The notes beneath the pieces are model-generated. The model worked only from the letters and a program-made list of their open reading frames with translations. It was not told where the DNA came from and ran no database searches. 64,000 bases of DNA from a virus, in the IMG/VR virus record IMGVR_UViG_3300035150_000164, positions 1-64,000 of that record; one strand, 5' to 3'. This document shows, piece by piece, positions 10,800 through 43,074 of the stretch. Numbering within the stretch: position 1 is the first letter of the stretch; every line of letters starts with the position of its first letter. A program made the translations under genes and the position numbers.

Positions 10800-10994
10800 C
10801 TATCTCCTACGCCTAGGTACTGGTCTTTTTTGTTTCTGCCTAGCCTGAGCCTCTTTCTCCATCGTATATTTTTTATCTACAAATCTTCGCCTTCTTGAAT
10901 ATGGCATATTCATAACAGAGTCATAAGTCTGGCTTTGTCGCTCCATCAAAAAAAAGACCTCCTCCTCTAATGTTTCTTGGAGGCCGATGGGAAG
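10800..10994 (-). CDS. Tail assembly chaperone, T frame (reached by -1 frameshift)
   Basis: 64 codons in the -1 frame relative to the upstream gene, beginning at the slip site. The product would be residues 284-347 of a G-T fusion: LPIGLQETLEEEVFFL followed by a strongly basic tail ending RRRR. This frame has no well-placed start codon of its own: its first ATG (11033) lies deep inside the upstream frame. Placement right before the tape measure gene is the hallmark of the frameshifted T segment in lambda-like and T4-like tail chaperones. Confidence 0.8.
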   Translation of the reverse strand, partial: LPIGLQETLEEEVFFLMERQSQTYDSVMNMPYSRRRRFVDKKYTMEKEAQARQKQKRPVPRRRR

Positions 10995-11000
10995 AAAAAA
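10956..11000 (-). promoter_or_regulatory. Programmed -1 frameshift site T_TTT_TTC with stem
   Basis: On the minus strand codons GGT TTT TTC at 11002-10994 contain the slippery heptamer T TTT TTC. After an 8-nt spacer a stem follows: GGCCTCC (10985-10979) can pair with GGAGGTC (10962-10956) with one G-U. Slippage by -1 leads into the 64-codon T frame and gives a 347-aa fusion in place of the 291-aa product. Confidence 0.82.
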
Positions 11001-11842
11001 CCAGATTGCCCTACGTTCATCTCGCCTTCCCATTCATGCTGGCACTCATCACAGACATATTCAACTTTTGTATCTACAGAACCCTCTTCGGTTTCAAAAA
11101 TGTTCCTCAATGCAGATCTATCATTAATAGATAAATCTTTTAGTGCCAAAATAGCATTTTTGTACTTCTTACTACGATCTAATTTCACACCATTAATAGC
11201 ATCTACACGAGATAAAAGACCTAGTGTCAGTTGATCTCTCTTCTTTTTCGCCTGTGTCGTCAACCATTCCTCATCTTCTGTACGGATTACATGCCACTTA
11301 ACCTCTGTACCACTAGGTAGTGTATCAACTCTCTCCCTTGTCATTCTATCAGGCATCGGAATTATTTCAATTTCTGATAAATTCAGTGTCATATGCTGTT
11401 CTACATTACACTCAGGACACGTAACCTTGCAGTCATAATAATCACCTAGCGATATCCTCCTAATAGCAATTAAGATCGCCATTCTGTCACCTGCTGTAAG
11501 TTTATATGCAGCTTTTTTCAAAACACTCTTATCAGTTATACTACCAATACCCTCAAGACAATTCCCTATAACCATATTCAGTCTAGATACAATAGACCCC
11601 TTTCCTGCTAAAACATCCTCTTCATGCCCCCTCATCTCTCGAACAACAGACGTAGAATGCAACTCTCCCTCGTGTATATATCCAGCAGGAAGCTCAACAG
11701 CCAAACATCCCGGACCTACATCTAGAACATGCCCCTTCGTTCTATCTTGAATAATTTTCTCTTTCTTTCCAATAACTTCAACCGTTTCATGCTCTTCTTT
11801 CATCTTTTTCCTCATTAATTTCAGCAAGTTTTCGTTTTTCAC
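10967..11842 (-). CDS. Tail assembly chaperone, G frame (gp26-like family)
   Basis: 291 aa. The central part (RMAILIAIRRISLGDYYDC, then CPECNVEQHMTLNLSEIE) resembles the T4 gp26-type/tail-chaperone family found upstream of tape measures in myoviruses. Cys pairs CPEC (near 146) and CDEC (near 266) suggest bound zinc. The start is GTG at 11842 with GGAGGG just upstream. Near codon 283 ribosomes can slip into the T frame. The two products would coat the tape measure during tail assembly. It overlaps the ribbon-helix-helix gene by 56 nt. Confidence 0.82.
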   Translation of the reverse strand: MKNENLLKLMRKKMKEEHETVEVIGKKEKIIQDRTKGHVLDVGPGCLAVELPAGYIHEGELHSTSVVREMRGHEEDVLAGKGSIVSRLNMVIGNCLEGIGSITDKSVLKKAAYKLTAGDRMAILIAIRRISLGDYYDCKVTCPECNVEQHMTLNLSEIEIIPMPDRMTRERVDTLPSGTEVKWHVIRTEDEEWLTTQAKKKRDQLTLGLLSRVDAINGVKLDRSKKYKNAILALKDLSINDRSALRNIFETEEGSVDTKVEYVCDECQHEWEGEMNVGQSGFFFPSASKKH

Positions 11843-32505: not shown

Positions 32506-33089
32506 CACAAATTTACCTTTCTGTCTGGTGTAAATTGCGTACGCTTCTTGAGTTCCAATCTCCATCCTACAGTAACTGCCGTCCCCCTAATATTCCCTGA
32601 CCTTCCTGCCTTCACAACATCCCACCACTCCAAAAACCCATAACAAACATCACCCTCTTTAGGCGTCCTATCTATAATACATGCTACTGTAGTTCCAAGA
32701 TCATCCGTGTAACATTCCCAGTGAAAATCAGCAATCACCAATATGGCATCGTATTCTACGATCTTTCCCTCTGGTCTAACCATCGGATTTCTATTCTCTG
32801 CTTCCACATACTCAAAAGCACATGGAATCGTTAAATAACCGTCTCCAGCCGCTATATCTGGACAAAAATTCCAAGATAAATCATGCGTCTGTGGTGTTCC
32901 TGCCGAGGAACTACCTCCATACAACGGGTCGTTATCCGGCTCACCATACATAGCATCTACATTAGTCCCCCTATTCAAACTATAGTACTCTACTGTAACT
33001 CCAGATTTTTCAATACGCTCTGCCTCAAGTTGCTTTAAATACTCAGCATCTTGAGAACCGTAAATACCACCTGTTCCTTGACATCCCAT
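32505..33089 (-). CDS. Hypothetical 194-aa head-tail joining protein
   Basis: Begins MGCQGTGGIYGSQDAEYLKQL and includes YYSLNRGTNVDAMYGEP, a wording seen in small head-tail joining or completion proteins; the rest is beta-rich with YDAILVIADFHWE. A palindrome copy ends 16 nt before the ATG. Tentative. Confidence 0.55.
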   Translation of the reverse strand: MGCQGTGGIYGSQDAEYLKQLEAERIEKSGVTVEYYSLNRGTNVDAMYGEPDNDPLYGGSSSAGTPQTHDLSWNFCPDIAAGDGYLTIPCAFEYVEAENRNPMVRPEGKIVEYDAILVIADFHWECYTDDLGTTVACIIDRTPKEGDVCYGFLEWWDVVKAGRSGNIRGTAVTVGWRLELKKRTQFTPDRKVNL

Positions 33090-36039: not shown

Positions 36040-37650
36040 CTAAGAAGTAGTCACCGTAGGTAGACCACTACAAGTAATCACACCGTAATCCTCTGGTCGA
36101 AGCATCTTCTTCGCAAACCTAGTCCACATTCCCTTCGTGTGAGTAAAAGTATTCGGATCAAAGAAAGTTGGAGTCATCTGAAGCGGAACAAATGGACAAT
36201 ACGCGTATGCAGCGTCCAAAAAGCTGTTCCCTTTTCGTCCTACCAAAATCTTCGTCTCATCAATAAACGGATCAAGGTAAACAGCCCACTTCCTGCACAA
36301 CGTACCAACCCTAGTAATACCGTAATTAGAAGTCATAGGACCATAACTAGGTGGCACCACGTTCTGCTCAATGGTCGAAAAATCACCATGTGTCGATAAC
36401 TGATCTAACAGATTTGAAACACCAGGACCAACTACCACGAAGTTCGCTGGTGCTCTACGTCCAACCTTGTGAATACGACCAGATACTGAACCTATAATAG
36501 TAAGTAGCTCACGAATCGTCTCTAACTCACCTGGCGTAGTAGAAGCATACGTATAAGCAGCAGCATGCTGTGCTCCAGCAACTAGATCATCTATGATCTG
36601 CCTATCAATTTCTAACATTACCTCGTTAGCAAAATCAGCAACAAGTTCAGTCTCAGCATCCCTACCGTGTTGAGACCTCAAGTCTTCAACACTTGTCTGA
36701 GTCCACTGAGCTTTCAGTTTTGCCTCTTCTGCTATCACAGGAACACTAGTCAAATTCAAACTGATACTAGGAACACTAGCTCCACTGGTCTGAAACACCA
36801 ATTCCCAATTCACAAAATACTGGAAATAGATAACAGTATTATCTACAAACGTACTCGCAACACCAGTCTCGTCATAAGCAGTAATTGACCAGTTTCCGGT
36901 AGTAATATCAAAGGTACCTACAGTCGCCGGTGTCGCTTGATCATCCACCAAATTACCAGATGCATTCATAGTAGCAGTGATAGTAACCTCTCCTGTACCA
37001 GCATTATCCACAACACGATAGATAGCCCTCGTGAAGAAAGTCCGCTGACCAGAAGTTCCGTTGTCTCGAATTGGACTCCAGTCCGTCGTTCTACAATTCG
37101 TAGAAGCCTGGGTAAGTACCGTAGAGCTAGTACCTGTATCTGTACAAACCGAATCATAATCAACAAACTCACTACTGTAGTACTTACCAAAATTCTGCCG
37201 CATATTAGATCCAGCAGTAAGCTCTCCATCATAACTCATGTCAGTAGCGGTACCAGTAATACCATTAGGAGGAAGCATAGTCCCCTTGCGGTCATCGTAC
37301 ACACTCTCTTTGTAGAATACCAAACCTGAAGGACTCGTCATCGGCTGTACCGAAACAAGTTGGTTTGCAATCAGGTTCGGCCACACTCTACGAAGAATCG
37401 GAAATACATACTTGGTGAAATACCCAGTATTCGTGGACAAAGTATCTTCCTGAAGAGCCTTCAGGTGATCCATCTGATTTTCCATCAGAACAGCTGTCAC
37501 CTTCTTGATATACGGATACTTTATTGGATCCCTATCATGAGTCTCTTCCAAAAGATCTTTGTGCTTGTTAATACAATAGTTAGAGTAGTGAGCGTCATAC
37601 ACACTACCTCTCCCTGCCATTTCTAACAGTTGTCTGGCTTCGTCTGGCAT
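36040..37650 (-). CDS. Major capsid protein, gp23-like
   Basis: 536 aa. PILRRVWPNLIANQLVSVQPM at about residue 84, FYKESVYDDRKGTM, then a central beta insertion (about 170-290), then LRSQHGRDAETELVADFANE and the C-terminal IHKVGRRAPANFVVVGPGV ... KILVGRKGNSFLDAAYAYCPF are the conserved parts of T4-type HK97-fold capsid proteins. Expected to be cut at an (L/I)xE site near the N-terminus by the prohead protease. A strong terminator follows. Confidence 0.93.
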   Translation of the reverse strand: MPDEARQLLEMAGRGSVYDAHYSNYCINKHKDLLEETHDRDPIKYPYIKKVTAVLMENQMDHLKALQEDTLSTNTGYFTKYVFPILRRVWPNLIANQLVSVQPMTSPSGLVFYKESVYDDRKGTMLPPNGITGTATDMSYDGELTAGSNMRQNFGKYYSSEFVDYDSVCTDTGTSSTVLTQASTNCRTTDWSPIRDNGTSGQRTFFTRAIYRVVDNAGTGEVTITATMNASGNLVDDQATPATVGTFDITTGNWSITAYDETGVASTFVDNTVIYFQYFVNWELVFQTSGASVPSISLNLTSVPVIAEEAKLKAQWTQTSVEDLRSQHGRDAETELVADFANEVMLEIDRQIIDDLVAGAQHAAAYTYASTTPGELETIRELLTIIGSVSGRIHKVGRRAPANFVVVGPGVSNLLDQLSTHGDFSTIEQNVVPPSYGPMTSNYGITRVGTLCRKWAVYLDPFIDETKILVGRKGNSFLDAAYAYCPFVPLQMTPTFFDPNTFTHTKGMWTRFAKKMLRPEDYGVITCSGLPTVTTS

Positions 37651-37675: not shown

Positions 37676-39337
37676 TTACCCAGGAATCCCAGCTAATCTA
37701 GCCTGATGAGAAATATCGTTTCCTAACTCGTCCTTCCTCTTATCTTTAGGCCTGTCTCGCTCTTCCTCCAATCGTACGCCATCACCTGTCTTTCCTTTAC
37801 CAAGTTTATTTCGCATACGCTGAAGAACTGGATCCCTTACTTCTGTTAACCCGTTCTTTCCAACTAACTCATCTACGCCAGCTCGGTCATGGACTGACTC
37901 CATAAGACCAATCAACTCTCTACCATTTGTTAAACCAACAACCTTATCACGCTTGTAGACTTCCAGTTCCGCATCCTCAACTAGTTTACGAGCATTCTCT
38001 GTGGCTTCATTCGCTTCAGACTTCGCTAATTCAGCCACTTCAATGGCTTCCTCAAGACTCTTCTCAAGCTCTGAAATCCTGTCGCTCATCTCGCTAGTAT
38101 CTTTGACGCGCTGATCGTCTATGCGTTGTCCCAACGTAACAGCTTTCCGCAACTTAACATTCAACTCTTCAACCTTACTTTCCAGCAGGGCTATATTACC
38201 TCGAAGCTCCACGTTTTCCTCGCGGGTCTTCGCCTCTTCCTTAGTTACTATTTCGTCTGCACTTGGCAATTCTGAAATAATCGTATTTAATGCATCCTCT
38301 ACATCTTTTATGTCGTCAAAATTCCTGTTCTTGAACGACTTCCGAATACTCTCTGCCATAGGATGCTTTGATATCTTACGCTCTATATATAACAAATGAG
38401 CTGCTCTCTTCGCAGCCTCAAGAGCCTCATCTCGCTCTCTGTTTGATTCAGATACAGAAAGTTCACTAGCCCTAATAGCATCCTTCACCGCTTGCTGATC
38501 GACATCACCCCTGTATGCACTCACCATCTCCGCTATAGCAGCCAATACACCCTTAGCACCACCAACTTCTGGGTCTTCCTCTAATTCTTCCCGAACCTCG
38601 CTAACAACCTCTTCTCGCATATCAGCAAGCACATCACGTAAATTACGCTCAAATTCCTCCGACATATCTCTACGAATATTATCGTATTCTTTGCTCTTGG
38701 TGCTTTTATTTTTCTTGGACTCCTCTAAAACATCAACAGACTCTGTCCCTTTTATCTCCTCAGCAATATCAGGACAGGCTTCCATCAAAACCTTTGCAAC
38801 AGAACGCATATCAATATCCTCTACATGTACCTCTGGTATCGCTGAACGCATCGCAGGATCAGACACAAAATCAAATGTCTTCAGAATAAAATCGTCTTGT
38901 ACCTCTTCACCCTCTTGAGACCCACGAGCAGGTGCCGTGCTTCCATAACCACGACTGGATACCCCAACCTTAACTTTTGCTTCTATCAGCTTCTTCAGTA
39001 TCTCTCCAGCAGGCGTAGGCAAAATTTCTGCCTCTCCAATCACAATACCATCTTTTATCTTCAGATCGGTAATCAAATGGCTCGCATGATATAGAGATGT
39101 TTTTCCATCGCTTGGATGTTCAATATGCCCCAGCATCCTAGATGTACGGTTGTCCATATCCTCACGAAGCCGCTTAATCTCCCTAGCCATTAACTCTTCG
39201 CGATAAATACGACCGTTCTGTGTCGGTACCCCAACACGTCCAAATTCACCACGTGCTATTACCTTATTCCCAGTATTGCTTTCTACCAATGAAAGCTCAG
39301 ACATAAGCGATTCAGTTAATTCCTGGATCTTATTCAT
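37676..39337 (-). CDS. Prohead protease (gp21-like) fused to scaffold
   Basis: 553 aa from ATG 39337 (GGGGA 4 nt upstream). Residues about 25-135 have the T4 gp21/S80 protease signature: QNGRIYREELMAREI, LGHIEHPSDGKTSL with H71 and a VGVSSRGYGS serine near 127-128. Residues about 190-500 are a long Glu/Lys coiled coil typical of prohead core (scaffold) proteins such as gp22. In T4 the two are separate genes; here they form one protein, as in lambda gpC/Nu3-type protease-scaffold fusions. The core is expected to be degraded after head assembly. Confidence 0.82.
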   Translation of the reverse strand: MNKIQELTESLMSELSLVESNTGNKVIARGEFGRVGVPTQNGRIYREELMAREIKRLREDMDNRTSRMLGHIEHPSDGKTSLYHASHLITDLKIKDGIVIGEAEILPTPAGEILKKLIEAKVKVGVSSRGYGSTAPARGSQEGEEVQDDFILKTFDFVSDPAMRSAIPEVHVEDIDMRSVAKVLMEACPDIAEEIKGTESVDVLEESKKNKSTKSKEYDNIRRDMSEEFERNLRDVLADMREEVVSEVREELEEDPEVGGAKGVLAAIAEMVSAYRGDVDQQAVKDAIRASELSVSESNRERDEALEAAKRAAHLLYIERKISKHPMAESIRKSFKNRNFDDIKDVEDALNTIISELPSADEIVTKEEAKTREENVELRGNIALLESKVEELNVKLRKAVTLGQRIDDQRVKDTSEMSDRISELEKSLEEAIEVAELAKSEANEATENARKLVEDAELEVYKRDKVVGLTNGRELIGLMESVHDRAGVDELVGKNGLTEVRDPVLQRMRNKLGKGKTGDGVRLEEERDRPKDKRKDELGNDISHQARLAGIPG

Positions 39338-39338
39338 C

Positions 39339-39569
39339 TTATCCCCATTTTCTCCACTTTTTGAACCTATATGGTGTTCTTGCAAGTGGATTGCGGTCGA
39401 GCTTTCGCTTGGCTTCTGGAGAGATCTTTCGCTTTGTCTTTTTTCCATCCAACCTAATACTTTTGAGTTGCGAGACAAAACCTATTAACTCCAATCTCCC
39501 CGATGTATACGCCGTTCTTCGTTTCCGCTTACCACCACTCGATTTCTTCTCTGATAAGCGGTCTATTCG
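39339..39569 (-). CDS. Basic 76-codon extension reached by -1 frameshift
   Basis: Open frame, without a good start codon, in the -1 frame after the slip site. It reads RIDRLSEKKSSGGKRKRR, then a basic, Arg/Lys-rich sequence ending in FKKWRKWG, and stops 1 nt before the protease ATG, exactly filling the gap between two genes. A frameshifted product of the upstream gene would be 388 aa with a nucleic-acid-binding-like tail. Confidence 0.62.
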   Translation of the reverse strand, partial: RIDRLSEKKSSGGKRKRRTAYTSGRLELIGFVSQLKSIRLDGKKTKRKISPEAKRKLDRNPLARTPYRFKKWRKWG

Positions 39570-39575
39570 TTTCCC
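39525..39575 (-). promoter_or_regulatory. Candidate -1 frameshift site G_GGA_AAC with stem
   Basis: Codons TTG GGA AAC at 39577-39569 give the slippery heptamer G GGA AAC four codon-bases before the stop (GAA TAG). A 7-nt spacer is followed by the stem CCGCTTATC (39561-39553) with GGTAAGCGG (39533-39525), 9 bp including one U-G, loop 19 nt. Site, spacing and stem all fit a -1 frameshift signal. Confidence 0.65.
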
Positions 39576-40504
39576 AAATCTTCCGTCTTCTCAAGATTCT
39601 CAAGACTCTTTGTTATCAATGAAGTGATCGGCTCTAACTCTGCAATAAATTCACTCCCATCCATAACATCTTCATCCAAACGTCCTACATCATATGCATC
39701 CAGCATATTTTCAACAGCATCCTCGTATATCTGGGTAACTACCTGATCTACAAATTCCTCATTCAGCAATTCAACTATATTAACACAATGCTCTACAATA
39801 TCATCCCTAACACTAACATTATCATTACCATGTACACCCTCTGCTACCTGCATAAGATCCTGTGCAAATGGAGAAATCAAATCTTCACGGCGCATAGCTC
39901 CTCTACGCTTCTCAGCACGGAAACTACGCATCTTACTCATAGTCCCCTTTCCACCACGACTCCATTTTTTCTTCTTCCTGCTCTCCTTACGTAGTTTACC
40001 CATCCCACCAGATACAATATGAGCTGGCCTACACTGGGGACGCCCTCCGCCACTACCTACAGATACCGCACGCTGTCCCTTTGGACACTGAAAACTCATC
40101 TTCCTAGCAGTAGACTTTGCCTTAAATCTACGCTGCCTAGTCGCTGCACCCTCTTTCAAAAGCACCACAACTCGCTCAGCATGCTCTCTTAACTCATCAT
40201 CCCCATCAGGCAATTTCTTTTCTGAAAGCTCGTTCAAAAGCTCCTCAAAATCAGACTCTTCCATCGCATCAAAAGGCAAAGCCTCTATACGATCAAAAAG
40301 TTCTTTCGTAACATAAAGTCCATCAATAGGATCATCAGAATCCTCATCAACTTTCTGCTCTTCTTGCTGCTCTTCTTGCTCTGGCTCTGGCTCTGGCTCA
40401 TCTAATTCACCACTAGGTGTTGCTCTAATGTTACCAATAATAACATTAGAACTAATACCCAGTTGTTCCAAATCTTCCTGTAATGTTGTTTTAAAACGAC
40501 CCAT
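39563..40504 (-). CDS. Prohead-associated protein, 313 aa (frameshift donor)
   Basis: An acidic, Pro/Glu-rich N-terminus (EPEPEPEQEEQQEEQ near residue 40) is followed by a helix, a basic Gly/Lys/Arg-rich centre (residues about 125-200, with CPKGQ and GGGRPQC) and an acidic helical C-terminus. Lies between the portal-side gene and the protease, the place of prohead core proteins in T4-like phages. Its last codons form a frameshift site giving a basic extension. Confidence 0.62.
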   Translation of the reverse strand: MGRFKTTLQEDLEQLGISSNVIIGNIRATPSGELDEPEPEPEQEEQQEEQKVDEDSDDPIDGLYVTKELFDRIEALPFDAMEESDFEELLNELSEKKLPDGDDELREHAERVVVLLKEGAATRQRRFKAKSTARKMSFQCPKGQRAVSVGSGGGRPQCRPAHIVSGGMGKLRKESRKKKKWSRGGKGTMSKMRSFRAEKRRGAMRREDLISPFAQDLMQVAEGVHGNDNVSVRDDIVEHCVNIVELLNEEFVDQVVTQIYEDAVENMLDAYDVGRLDEDVMDGSEFIAELEPITSLITKSLENLEKTEDLGNE

Positions 40505-40509
40505 GTTAA

Positions 40510-41379
40510 TTACTCCTTGTCGTTAGATTGTGCCTTCATACCAATATATTCAGACACAAGCGCCATTGTCCTAGCTCGGTCGGCCAACCTATCATGTGCC
40601 TTCGCTACTAATGGCAAATCACCGTCTTGCCCTGACAACTTATCGGCCTTACCAAGCAGACCAACTATAGCCTGCGACTCAGCAATCAACGATTCACGTA
40701 CGGCACTTAAAAACTCTTGTTTCTCACTAAATGAAAGACCCTGGCATTTTGTTATGAATCCAGAGTATAACTCATTAATAATATTGATAGAATCATATAT
40801 TTCCTTCTTGAATTCTAATAACCTGTTCTCCGCTAATCTCGAATAATGCGTCTTAGGAACTTGACCTTCTATATCTCTAATACGACCATGTAAACTAGTC
40901 CTAATCCGCTCAATATTCGCATCATACATCTTGTACCATTCGGAATCTTCACCTGTAGCCTCATTAATAGATGATACAATATCAGACATCCAATACATCT
41001 CATCCTTACGTACAAAGGGAATCAACTCACGAACTTGAGTTCGTATAGCTTCCGTTATACCATTTCCATTCATAAGCAGATTGGTAATTTTCATCAATTC
41101 ACCAGCTACATGAAAAGGTATGTTGTCATCCTCAATTACCGGTATCGCCTTAGATGCATTGTTGCTCTTTATCTCAAGAACTCCGTCTTCATTAATGTAG
41201 TACGATATTTTCCTGAGACCTTTATCCTTATCAAAAGCCAAAACATAATCTTCAAACGTTGCAACTATATTCAACGGACTATCATATTTAAATTGTACTA
41301 GGTGCTTCACCGTATCAAGACGCTTCTCAATGCTATTTTTTTTCGCTTTTTCAATTGCTGAACCTTGAATAAATGGCAT
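40510..41379 (-). CDS. Hypothetical 289-aa protein between portal and prohead genes
   Basis: Predicted helical (EFKKEIYDSINIINELYSGF) with a beta N-terminus. A palindrome copy lies inside the gene and codes for residues RTQVR. It abuts the portal gene without a gap. No family recognised; capsid core or assembly role likely from place. Confidence 0.6.
   Translation of the reverse strand: MPFIQGSAIEKAKKNSIEKRLDTVKHLVQFKYDSPLNIVATFEDYVLAFDKDKGLRKISYYINEDGVLEIKSNNASKAIPVIEDDNIPFHVAGELMKITNLLMNGNGITEAIRTQVRELIPFVRKDEMYWMSDIVSSINEATGEDSEWYKMYDANIERIRTSLHGRIRDIEGQVPKTHYSRLAENRLLEFKKEIYDSINIINELYSGFITKCQGLSFSEKQEFLSAVRESLIAESQAIVGLLGKADKLSGQDGDLPLVAKAHDRLADRARTMALVSEYIGMKAQSNDKE
41030..41043. repeat. 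14-bp palindrome copy 8 (centre TG, inside a gene)
   Basis: CGAACTTGAGTTCG inside the 289-aa gene, with no internal gene start after it. One of the few copies away from a gene junction. Confidence 0.95.
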
Positions 41380-43074
41380 TTACTTAACTCCCGATACTCG
41401 CCTTCTGTCAATTCTCCTAATAGCCTTACTCACTTTCGGATCAATCTCCTCTACTTTTTTTAACATCCTACTGGATGTTTGTATAGTTTCCTGAACCGAC
41501 TCTTTAATTTTATCAAGTTTTTCCAATACGTCAACATCTTCTGTCTTATTATTATCATCTTGATTCGGAATTCTTACAGACCTTGTGCCAGATCTGCCAT
41601 CCTGCCACCTCGGAATTTCTACACCAGGATACTTACGCTGTATCATCGCCATAACCCTAGCATCATCGTTCATTTTCTTCTCATTTTCACTACTCTTATC
41701 ATTAACTACTACAACAGCATCATCTTGGCTCATGTGAAGAACATTCTGTAACAACCATTCTTCTGAGAAATACTGACTTAACGTTTCTATCAATCCGGCC
41801 TGTGCATTCATTACCTCTATCTGCTGAAGCTCAAAAATGCTACTAGGAACTGTCATCCTCATCTCCCATTCAACAGTATCCGGATCTATATCCAAAGCCG
41901 CTAGGTGAACCCTTATAATCTGCCTCATTCCGTTTTTGAACTCTCTCTGTACACGCATGCAAGTTCTTGCAAATCTAACATCCTTCTGAGCAAGCCCCTG
42001 TTCTGCCTCTGCATCCCCTCCGTAATAACTTCTAGGTATCTTCAGGGCTGTAAACATTTTTTCTCTGAAATATTCTATAGAATCGTTTGACTGCCAATCA
42101 GGACCAGATAATACTTCTACCCTGCTAGATTCCTTCCCTCCCCTTGTGGCAACCCATACATCATCTTCTGGTGACAAAGCGTTGTGTCTAAAATCTATCT
42201 CCCCAGTAGACGGATTAACAAGCGTTCTTTTCTTATATTGTCTACGTGCCTTTTTTAATACAGCATTAGCCTCTGCTGGTGGTAAATCGCCAGTATCAAC
42301 ATAAAATATGTACCTTCCAGGAGATCTGCTAAGCATATATATTAATGATGTATCCTCCAACATCACCAAGCGTTTCCAAATCCAACGCGCAGCCTCCATT
42401 GTAGACCACCCATATAACGATTGAATAAACTTAGATCTCAACCTCCAGTGAACAATCTCCCAGGGCTCAAAAAATATCATCCCCCGCTCTTCAGCTTTTT
42501 TCTTTATAGATTCAACTGTCTCGTCATCCTTTATACTGATACCGAATCTTCCTGACATATCCTGAAGATATCCAATTAACCCACCCTTAGCATCTACCAA
42601 CCTTCTAACCGTTGGCACTGGCAAAAAATTAAGACCTACCACTCCCCTTTCTGTAACAACTATTTCTGCATATAAATTTCCATACTTACAAAGCGCCCTT
42701 ACCGCAATCCAAATATCATCCTCTATCCTAAGCCTTCGGTGTAGACAATCATTAATTATGTTTCGAAGTAAATTATCCTTAGACTCTGCCCATATACTCT
42801 TCCCCCTAACACTATCTGGTATAGTACTGTCATCAGCCATTATATCCAAACTCGCACTGAGTTCAGGGTAATCATCCATATCCTCGTAATCACTATATCT
42901 TTGTAACAACGCATGATCTATAGAAATAGACTCAGATATGGACTTCATCATGCCACCAGGTGCAAACGCCTCACTAGAAGTAGGATCATCTACCGTCTTA
43001 CCACGTCCACCTTCAGCAGCCTGATACGCCTTATCCCTCTTGAATAATCTAGCTATTGACTCTTTAAATCCCAT
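41380..43074 (-). CDS. Portal protein, gp20-like
   Basis: 564 aa. YSDYEDMDDYPELSASLDIMADD at about residue 60, LCKYGNLYAEIVV, RIKSKF-type HWRLRSKFIQSLYGWST and MEAARWIWKRLVMLEDTSLIYM are the signature of T4 gp20-type portal proteins. The dodecameric portal is the DNA entry pore at one capsid vertex, a partner of the terminase. Gene order terminase-portal-protease-capsid is the T4 order. Confidence 0.9.
   Translation of the reverse strand: MGFKESIARLFKRDKAYQAAEGGRGKTVDDPTSSEAFAPGGMMKSISESISIDHALLQRYSDYEDMDDYPELSASLDIMADDSTIPDSVRGKSIWAESKDNLLRNIINDCLHRRLRIEDDIWIAVRALCKYGNLYAEIVVTERGVVGLNFLPVPTVRRLVDAKGGLIGYLQDMSGRFGISIKDDETVESIKKKAEERGMIFFEPWEIVHWRLRSKFIQSLYGWSTMEAARWIWKRLVMLEDTSLIYMLSRSPGRYIFYVDTGDLPPAEANAVLKKARRQYKKRTLVNPSTGEIDFRHNALSPEDDVWVATRGGKESSRVEVLSGPDWQSNDSIEYFREKMFTALKIPRSYYGGDAEAEQGLAQKDVRFARTCMRVQREFKNGMRQIIRVHLAALDIDPDTVEWEMRMTVPSSIFELQQIEVMNAQAGLIETLSQYFSEEWLLQNVLHMSQDDAVVVVNDKSSENEKKMNDDARVMAMIQRKYPGVEIPRWQDGRSGTRSVRIPNQDDNNKTEDVDVLEKLDKIKESVQETIQTSSRMLKKVEEIDPKVSKAIRRIDRRRVSGVK

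What the first reader, a model, noticed from the sequence alone, without database searches (positions are those of the whole stretch)
39525..39575. Second candidate -1 frameshift, G_GGA_AAC, in a prohead gene
The slippery heptamer G GGA AAC occurs at the correct phase just before the stop codon of the 313-aa gene. It is followed by a 7-nt spacer and a 9-bp stem (one wobble). The -1 frame stays open for exactly 76 codons and ends 1 nt before the next ATG, adding a basic, Lys/Arg-rich tail. That open frame lacks a start codon of its own, so the extension would be made only by slippage. I know of no frameshift described at this place in T4-like prohead genes.
Basis: partly seen in the sequence, partly recalled or inferred. 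Interest (0 to 1): 0.86.

Follow-up and report, generated by a model that had tools for sequence, protein, structure and literature searches.

The report
Conserved frameshift in phage capsid-core gene
In a widespread but uncultured group of T4-like phages, ribosomes appear to slip back one base at the end of a capsid-core gene and add a strongly basic tail that has no start codon of its own, a device not previously reported for this gene and one that relatives have kept while repeatedly changing the exact slip site.

Summary
It is not chance. The same basic extension was found in 38 distinct phage loci (26 clusters at 70% identity), between portal and prohead protease, and in 37 of 38 it lies in the -1 frame of the upstream gene. 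It is under strong purifying selection in that frame (pN/pS 0.18, against 1.5 and 2.0 in the other two). Canonical slippery heptamers occur in phase in 28 of 37 loci (1 and 2 in the other phases; codon shuffles average 5.6). Six of the nine loci without a heptamer carry an in-phase C_CCT tetramer, shift-prone in E. coli. The slip site has been replaced many times while the -1 relation stayed. In about half the loci the extension has no usable start codon; one lineage has turned it into a separate gene with its own ATG. Best explanation: genuine programmed -1 ribosomal frameshifting giving a minority core protein with a basic tail (0.9). Cleavage of the tail by the prohead protease is inferred only. 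No protein or reporter evidence exists.

The parts
39563..40504 (-). 0-frame gene, 313 aa, putative prohead core protein (acidic N- and C-terminal parts, basic middle)
   Evidence: ORF; homologous in relatives at 30-60% identity; lies between portal and protease in all loci long enough to show it; mostly helical AF2 model, mean pLDDT 66
39569..39575 (-). slippery heptamer G GGA AAC, in phase
   Evidence: same motif in phase in 17 loci including the window, other canonical heptamers in 11 more
39563..39565 (-). 0-frame stop TAG, 3 nt after the heptamer
39562..39568 (-). 7-nt spacer GAATAGA
39553..39561 (-). 5' arm of stimulatory stem CCGCTTATC
   Evidence: all 27 pair cells kept in window, L005 and L006, one compensatory A-U to G-C change
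39525..39533 (-). 3' arm of stem GGTAAGCGG
39339..39569 (-). -1 frame extension, 76 codons plus stop TAA, basic (charge about +22)
   Evidence: conserved as protein in 38 loci; pN/pS 0.18 over 16 pairs in this frame
39549..39557 (-). Leu-Ser-Glu at the start of the extension; the Glu is conserved in nearly all relatives (candidate prohead-protease cleavage site, inferred)
   Evidence: alignments (Glu invariant in 13 of 13 rows; only L018 lacks it in the 38-row alignment)
37676..39337 (-). prohead protease fused to scaffold-like region (gp21/gp22-like), 553 aa
   Evidence: Peptidase_S77 E 1.8e-11; phrog_207 over residues 13-450
40510..41379 (-). 289-aa gene between portal and core gene
   Evidence: synteny; no significant family hit
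41380..43074 (-). portal (gp20-like)
   Evidence: Portal_T4 E 2e-61
36040..37650 (-). major capsid protein (gp23-like)
   Evidence: Gp23 E 1.7e-56

Best explanation
Programmed -1 ribosomal frameshifting. Most ribosomes finish the core protein at TAG. A fraction slip back one base on G GGA AAC (tRNA-Gly re-pairs on GGG, tRNA-Asn on AAA), helped by the stem 7 nt downstream, and add a 76-residue basic tail, then stop one base before the protease start codon. Shown by sequence: heptamer, phase, stem, open frame, conservation and purifying selection of the extension in the -1 frame, and recurrence of different known slip motifs in relatives. Inferred: that slippage occurs in the native host, its rate, and the role. 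The most likely role is to make a fixed minority of core proteins with a polycationic tail that contacts the acidic scaffold or the DNA inside the prohead. The tail may later be freed by the prohead protease at the conserved Glu.
For: In 37 of 38 distinct loci the extension is in the -1 frame of the upstream gene. In-phase canonical heptamers occur in 28 of 37 loci, against 1 and 2 in the other phases; codon shuffles give a mean of 5.6 and a maximum of 12 in 2000. Purifying selection: pN/pS 0.18 in the -1 frame, 1.47 and 2.01 in the others. Synteny portal - core/extension - protease - MCP is kept wherever the locus is long enough. In about half the loci no ATG/GTG/TTG lies near the junction or in the first part of the conserved block. 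Stem: z -2.67 in the window; 27/27 pair cells kept in the three nearest loci with one compensatory change; in the next group a different 10-bp stem kept in all 7, with a compensatory C-G to A-U change in two; mean z -1.4 over 34 loci. The motif classes used are among those measured in E. coli as able to shift (PMC4066793). On a protease tree the slip-site class needs at least 12 changes while the -1 relation is kept.
Against: No protein, ribosome-profiling or reporter data. G_GGA_AAC is of low efficiency in E. coli (PMC4066793), and the host of this phage is unknown. Three clusters (L026, L056, L067) lack a clear in-phase slip motif. L046-48 and probably L067 express the extension from their own ATG; L024 and L055 also have an ATG near the junction. 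Stems are not strong in every locus (z near 0 in L042, L051, L052, L061).
Confidence: 0.9

Rival explanations
1. The extension is a separate small gene translated by termination-reinitiation or coupling from a non-standard start codon (e.g. ATA at 39564-39566 or the internal TTG at 39492-39494), not by slippage.
For: L046-48 have it as a separate ORF with its own ATG about 30 nt after the upstream stop; L067 has an ATG overlapping the stop; some loci have GTG or TTG in the extension.
Against: About half the loci have no ATG/GTG/TTG near the junction or in the first conserved block, and conserved residues (R-L-S/G-E) lie upstream of the first TTG here. Reinitiation predicts neither in-phase slip motifs nor a constant -1 frame relation.
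Confidence: 0.07
2. Transcriptional slippage rather than ribosomal slippage produces the fusion.
For: It would also fuse the two frames.
Against: No long A or T run at the junction in the window or most relatives; the motifs are GGGAAAC, GGGAAAA, CCCTTTC and C_CCT. Only L055 has A AAA AAG.
Confidence: 0.015
3. Assembly or sequencing error: a single indel split one long gene in two.
For: The records are metagenome-derived.
Against: The same frame break occurs in dozens of independent assemblies from different samples, with different sequence and position, always -1.
Confidence: 0.005
4. Chance heptamer and chance open frame, no function.
For: 106 in-phase heptamers occur in window ORFs.
Against: The extension is a conserved protein under purifying selection in distant relatives.
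Confidence: 0.005

Closest known systems
Phage capsid-gene -1 frameshifts (T7/T3 gene 10, Lactobacillus phage A2 major head protein)
   Same: -1 slippage near the end of a head gene adds a C-terminal extension to a minority of the product (PMC5009743)
   Different: There the major capsid protein is extended, by an Ig-like domain in T3 and A2; here a core/scaffold-region gene gets a short polycationic tail, in T4-like phages
Tail assembly chaperone frameshift (lambda G/GT)
   Same: Conserved -1 slip in an assembly gene; frame relation kept across distant phages; lambda's motif is of the same G GGA AAN type (own knowledge)
   Different: Different gene and place: between portal and prohead protease, not upstream of the tape measure
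T4 genes 67 and 68 (prohead core)
   Same: Same position between gene 20 and gene 21; acidic and strongly basic core components
   Different: In T4-type phages these are separate ORFs with no frameshift annotated (IME08); no detectable similarity of core protein or extension to IME08 gp68
IS3/IS1 family transposase frameshifts
   Same: Use the same kinds of motif, including G_GGA_AAC and Z_ZZN tetramers (PMC4066793)
   Different: Unrelated genes

Membership tests
Programmed -1 ribosomal frameshift site (bacterial X_XXY_YYZ type) | Slippery motif in phase with the 0 frame, within the overlap | tested here: met
Programmed -1 ribosomal frameshift site (bacterial X_XXY_YYZ type) | Downstream stem or pseudoknot a few nt after the motif | tested here: met
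   Window: 7 nt, 9 bp, z -2.67; kept with one compensatory change; not strong in all relatives
Programmed -1 ribosomal frameshift site (bacterial X_XXY_YYZ type) | -1 ORF encodes a conserved protein | tested here: met
Programmed -1 ribosomal frameshift site (bacterial X_XXY_YYZ type) | Trans-frame fusion protein is made | not testable with these tools
   needs mass spectrometry or a reporter
T4-type prohead core gene (gp67/gp68) | Position between portal gp20 and protease gp21 | tested here: met
T4-type prohead core gene (gp67/gp68) | Sequence homology to gp67 or gp68 | tested here: not met
   hhalign to IME08 gp68: probability 0.4% and 0.1%; gp67 was not compared; no significant Pfam hit and only a weak PHROG of unknown function
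Substrate of gp21-type prohead protease | Hydrophobic-x-Glu site at the start of the extension | tested here: inconclusive
   Glu nearly invariant; the residue two before it is often L/V/I/A but not always; no cleavage data
Tail assembly chaperone frameshift (G/GT) | Lies just upstream of the tape measure gene | tested here: not met
   The gene lies in the head module

The most novel reading that the evidence does not exclude
Frameshifting sets a fixed ratio of plain to basic-tailed core protein in the prohead, and the tail is then cut off by the prohead protease after the conserved Glu, leaving a polycationic peptide packaged with the DNA. The slip site itself is freely replaced in evolution (Gly heptamers, Pro heptamers, C_CCT tetramers) while the -1 output is conserved, and one lineage has replaced slippage by an independent gene.
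Probability: 0.3. Interest if true: 0.78.

Novelty: new member of a known kind. Interest (0 to 1): 0.66.

Why it matters
It would be the first conserved programmed frameshift that I know of in the prohead-core region of T4-like phages. It exposes a 55-80-residue basic structural protein module that ordinary gene callers miss, because it often has no start codon. The family is a natural experiment on how frameshift sites turn over while their output is kept.

Tried and rejected
Named phages: tblastn with four extension sequences (window, L004 type, L027 type, consensus) found no real match. Genome contigs: none. A local profile search of the head regions of RM378, Mel-JY01, a 595-kb uncultured phage, LIS04, IME08, P-TIM68 and immuto found no convincing counterpart. 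Homology to IME08 gp68 rejected. AF2 of the extension gives a low-confidence, disordered-looking model (pLDDT 54), so no fold search was run. The 600-aa TTG-started form of the protease ORF overlapping the extension is taken as a shadow frame: pN/pS is above 1 in both other frames. In the tree the rows L015, L043 and L049 look wrongly extracted (very long branches), so only well-supported sister pairs should be used. The third viral-contig scan with A3 gave no new contigs.

Full report
Observation. The gene is on the minus strand, 39563-40504, ending TTG GGA AAC GAA TAG. The heptamer is followed by 7 nt and a 9-bp stem. The -1 frame runs 76 codons and stops one base before the ATG of the protease gene. 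The only correction concerns start codons: there is no ATG or GTG in the extension, but it has internal TTG codons.

Where it lies. Pfam and PHROG scans identify the neighbours as T4-type head genes: portal (Portal_T4), prohead protease (Peptidase_S77) fused to a scaffold-like region, and major capsid protein (Gp23). The 313-aa protein and its extension have no meaningful family match. The record is a 74.8-kb virus contig.

Relatives. A scan with the 313-aa protein gave a 44% identical relative, L004, whose gene ends TTG GGA AAC TGA. Its -1 frame encodes a 61% identical extension. Scans with extension alignments gave further loci; a third scan added no new contigs. After removing identical copies 38 loci remain including the window, 26 clusters at 70% identity of the extension. 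Most share the motif E-A-W-R-x-R-R-T-A-Y-x-S-G-R-x-E or a close form. In every locus long enough to show it, the order is portal, core gene plus extension, protease, MCP.

Frame relation. In 37 of 38 loci the extension is in the -1 frame of the upstream gene. The exception, L046 (with its copies L047 and L048), has it as a separate ORF with its own ATG, about 30 nt after the upstream stop. L045, its sister on the protease tree, uses the -1 arrangement.

Slip sites. Canonical in-phase heptamers: G GGA AAC (17 loci including the window), G GGA AAA (6), C CCT TTC or TTG (4), A AAA AAG (1), together 28 of 37 loci. (The count takes any X_XXY_YYZ within 240 nt of the stop.) The other two phases have 1 and 2. 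Codon shuffles average 5.6 loci and never exceed 12 in 2000. Of the nine without, six have an in-phase C_CCT tetramer; in the last 75 nt of all loci C_CCT occurs 10 times in phase and 0 and 4 times in the other phases. The tetramer class was noticed after the fact and is weaker evidence. L026, L056 and L067 remain unexplained, though L056 and L067 have a GGG GAA close to the stop and L067 has an ATG overlapping the stop. Sharma et al. 2014 (PMC4066793) measured all Z_ZZN and X_XXZ_ZZN motifs in E. coli: C_CCU is among the shift-prone tetramers, C_CCU_UUC is named as a high-level motif, and G_GGA_AAC works at low efficiency yet is common in insertion sequences.

Selection. Over 16 pairs, pN/pS in the extension is 0.18 in the -1 frame and 1.47 and 2.01 in the other two frames read on the same alignment. 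The alignment was made on the -1 translation, which favours that frame somewhat, but several pairs align without gaps.

RNA structure. Window z -2.67. The 9-bp stem is kept in L005 and L006; L005 carries TTA to TTG and GGT to GGC changes that are both synonymous and together restore a pair. Seven loci of the next group share another 10-bp stem 8 nt downstream, with a compensatory change in two of them. L008 has an 11-bp stem 7 nt after C CCT TTG; L043, L044 and L054 have long stems. Because this region also codes, some compensation could arise from codon constraint, and several loci show no notable stem. With three sequences the pair count does not exceed its own shuffles and rests on the slid controls.

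Mechanism and role. I commit to programmed -1 frameshifting (0.9). In T4 the core is built from gp22, gp67, gp68, gp21 and internal proteins in hundreds of copies, and gp21 cleaves gp22, gp67 and gp68 (PMC5694885). By analogy the frameshift would set the share of core proteins carrying a basic tail (charge +8 to +23). The near-invariant Glu at the start of the extension, often preceded two residues earlier by L, V, I or A, fits cleavage after Glu by a gp21-type protease. This is inference only. One lineage makes the module as a separate protein, which fits a function of the tail as a free peptide.

Literature. Searches of the held library found no report of frameshifting in T4-type prohead genes; the passages of the main review that were read list tail chaperone and capsid cases only. 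The library is partial, so this is not proof of novelty.

Evolution. On a protease tree the slip-site classes need at least 12 changes, with supported sister pairs of different type (L021 C CCT TTC and L028 G GGA AAA). Three rows in that tree are unreliable.

Noticed in passing
10994-11000 (-): T TTT TTC in phase near the end of a gene with a baseplate-hub family hit (10967-11842), directly upstream of the tape measure gene; the -1 frame runs 64 codons with a basic end.
   Followed up: partly
L004 148-2880: The portal ORF of L004 carries extra stretches that look like inteins (HNS and CNS junctions).
   Followed up: no
L015, between about 4190 and 5571: About 1.4 kb inserted between the extension and the protease match, absent in its close relatives.
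   Followed up: no
37676-39337 (-): Protease and scaffold-like region in one ORF (gp21 and gp22 are separate in T4-type phages).
   Followed up: partly
39563-40504 (-) and relatives: Core proteins of most lineages share an N-terminal motif like T-T/S-L-x-E-D-F/L-x-x-I/L-G-L, possibly a core-targeting signal.
   Followed up: no
32508-32514 (-): A AAT TTG immediately before the stop of a 194-aa ORF, with 83 open codons in the -1 frame; may be an ordinary gene overlap.
   Followed up: no
63352-63426 (-): ARAGORN reports a tRNA-like gene with a four-base anticodon (ccgt); may be degenerate or spurious.
   Followed up: no
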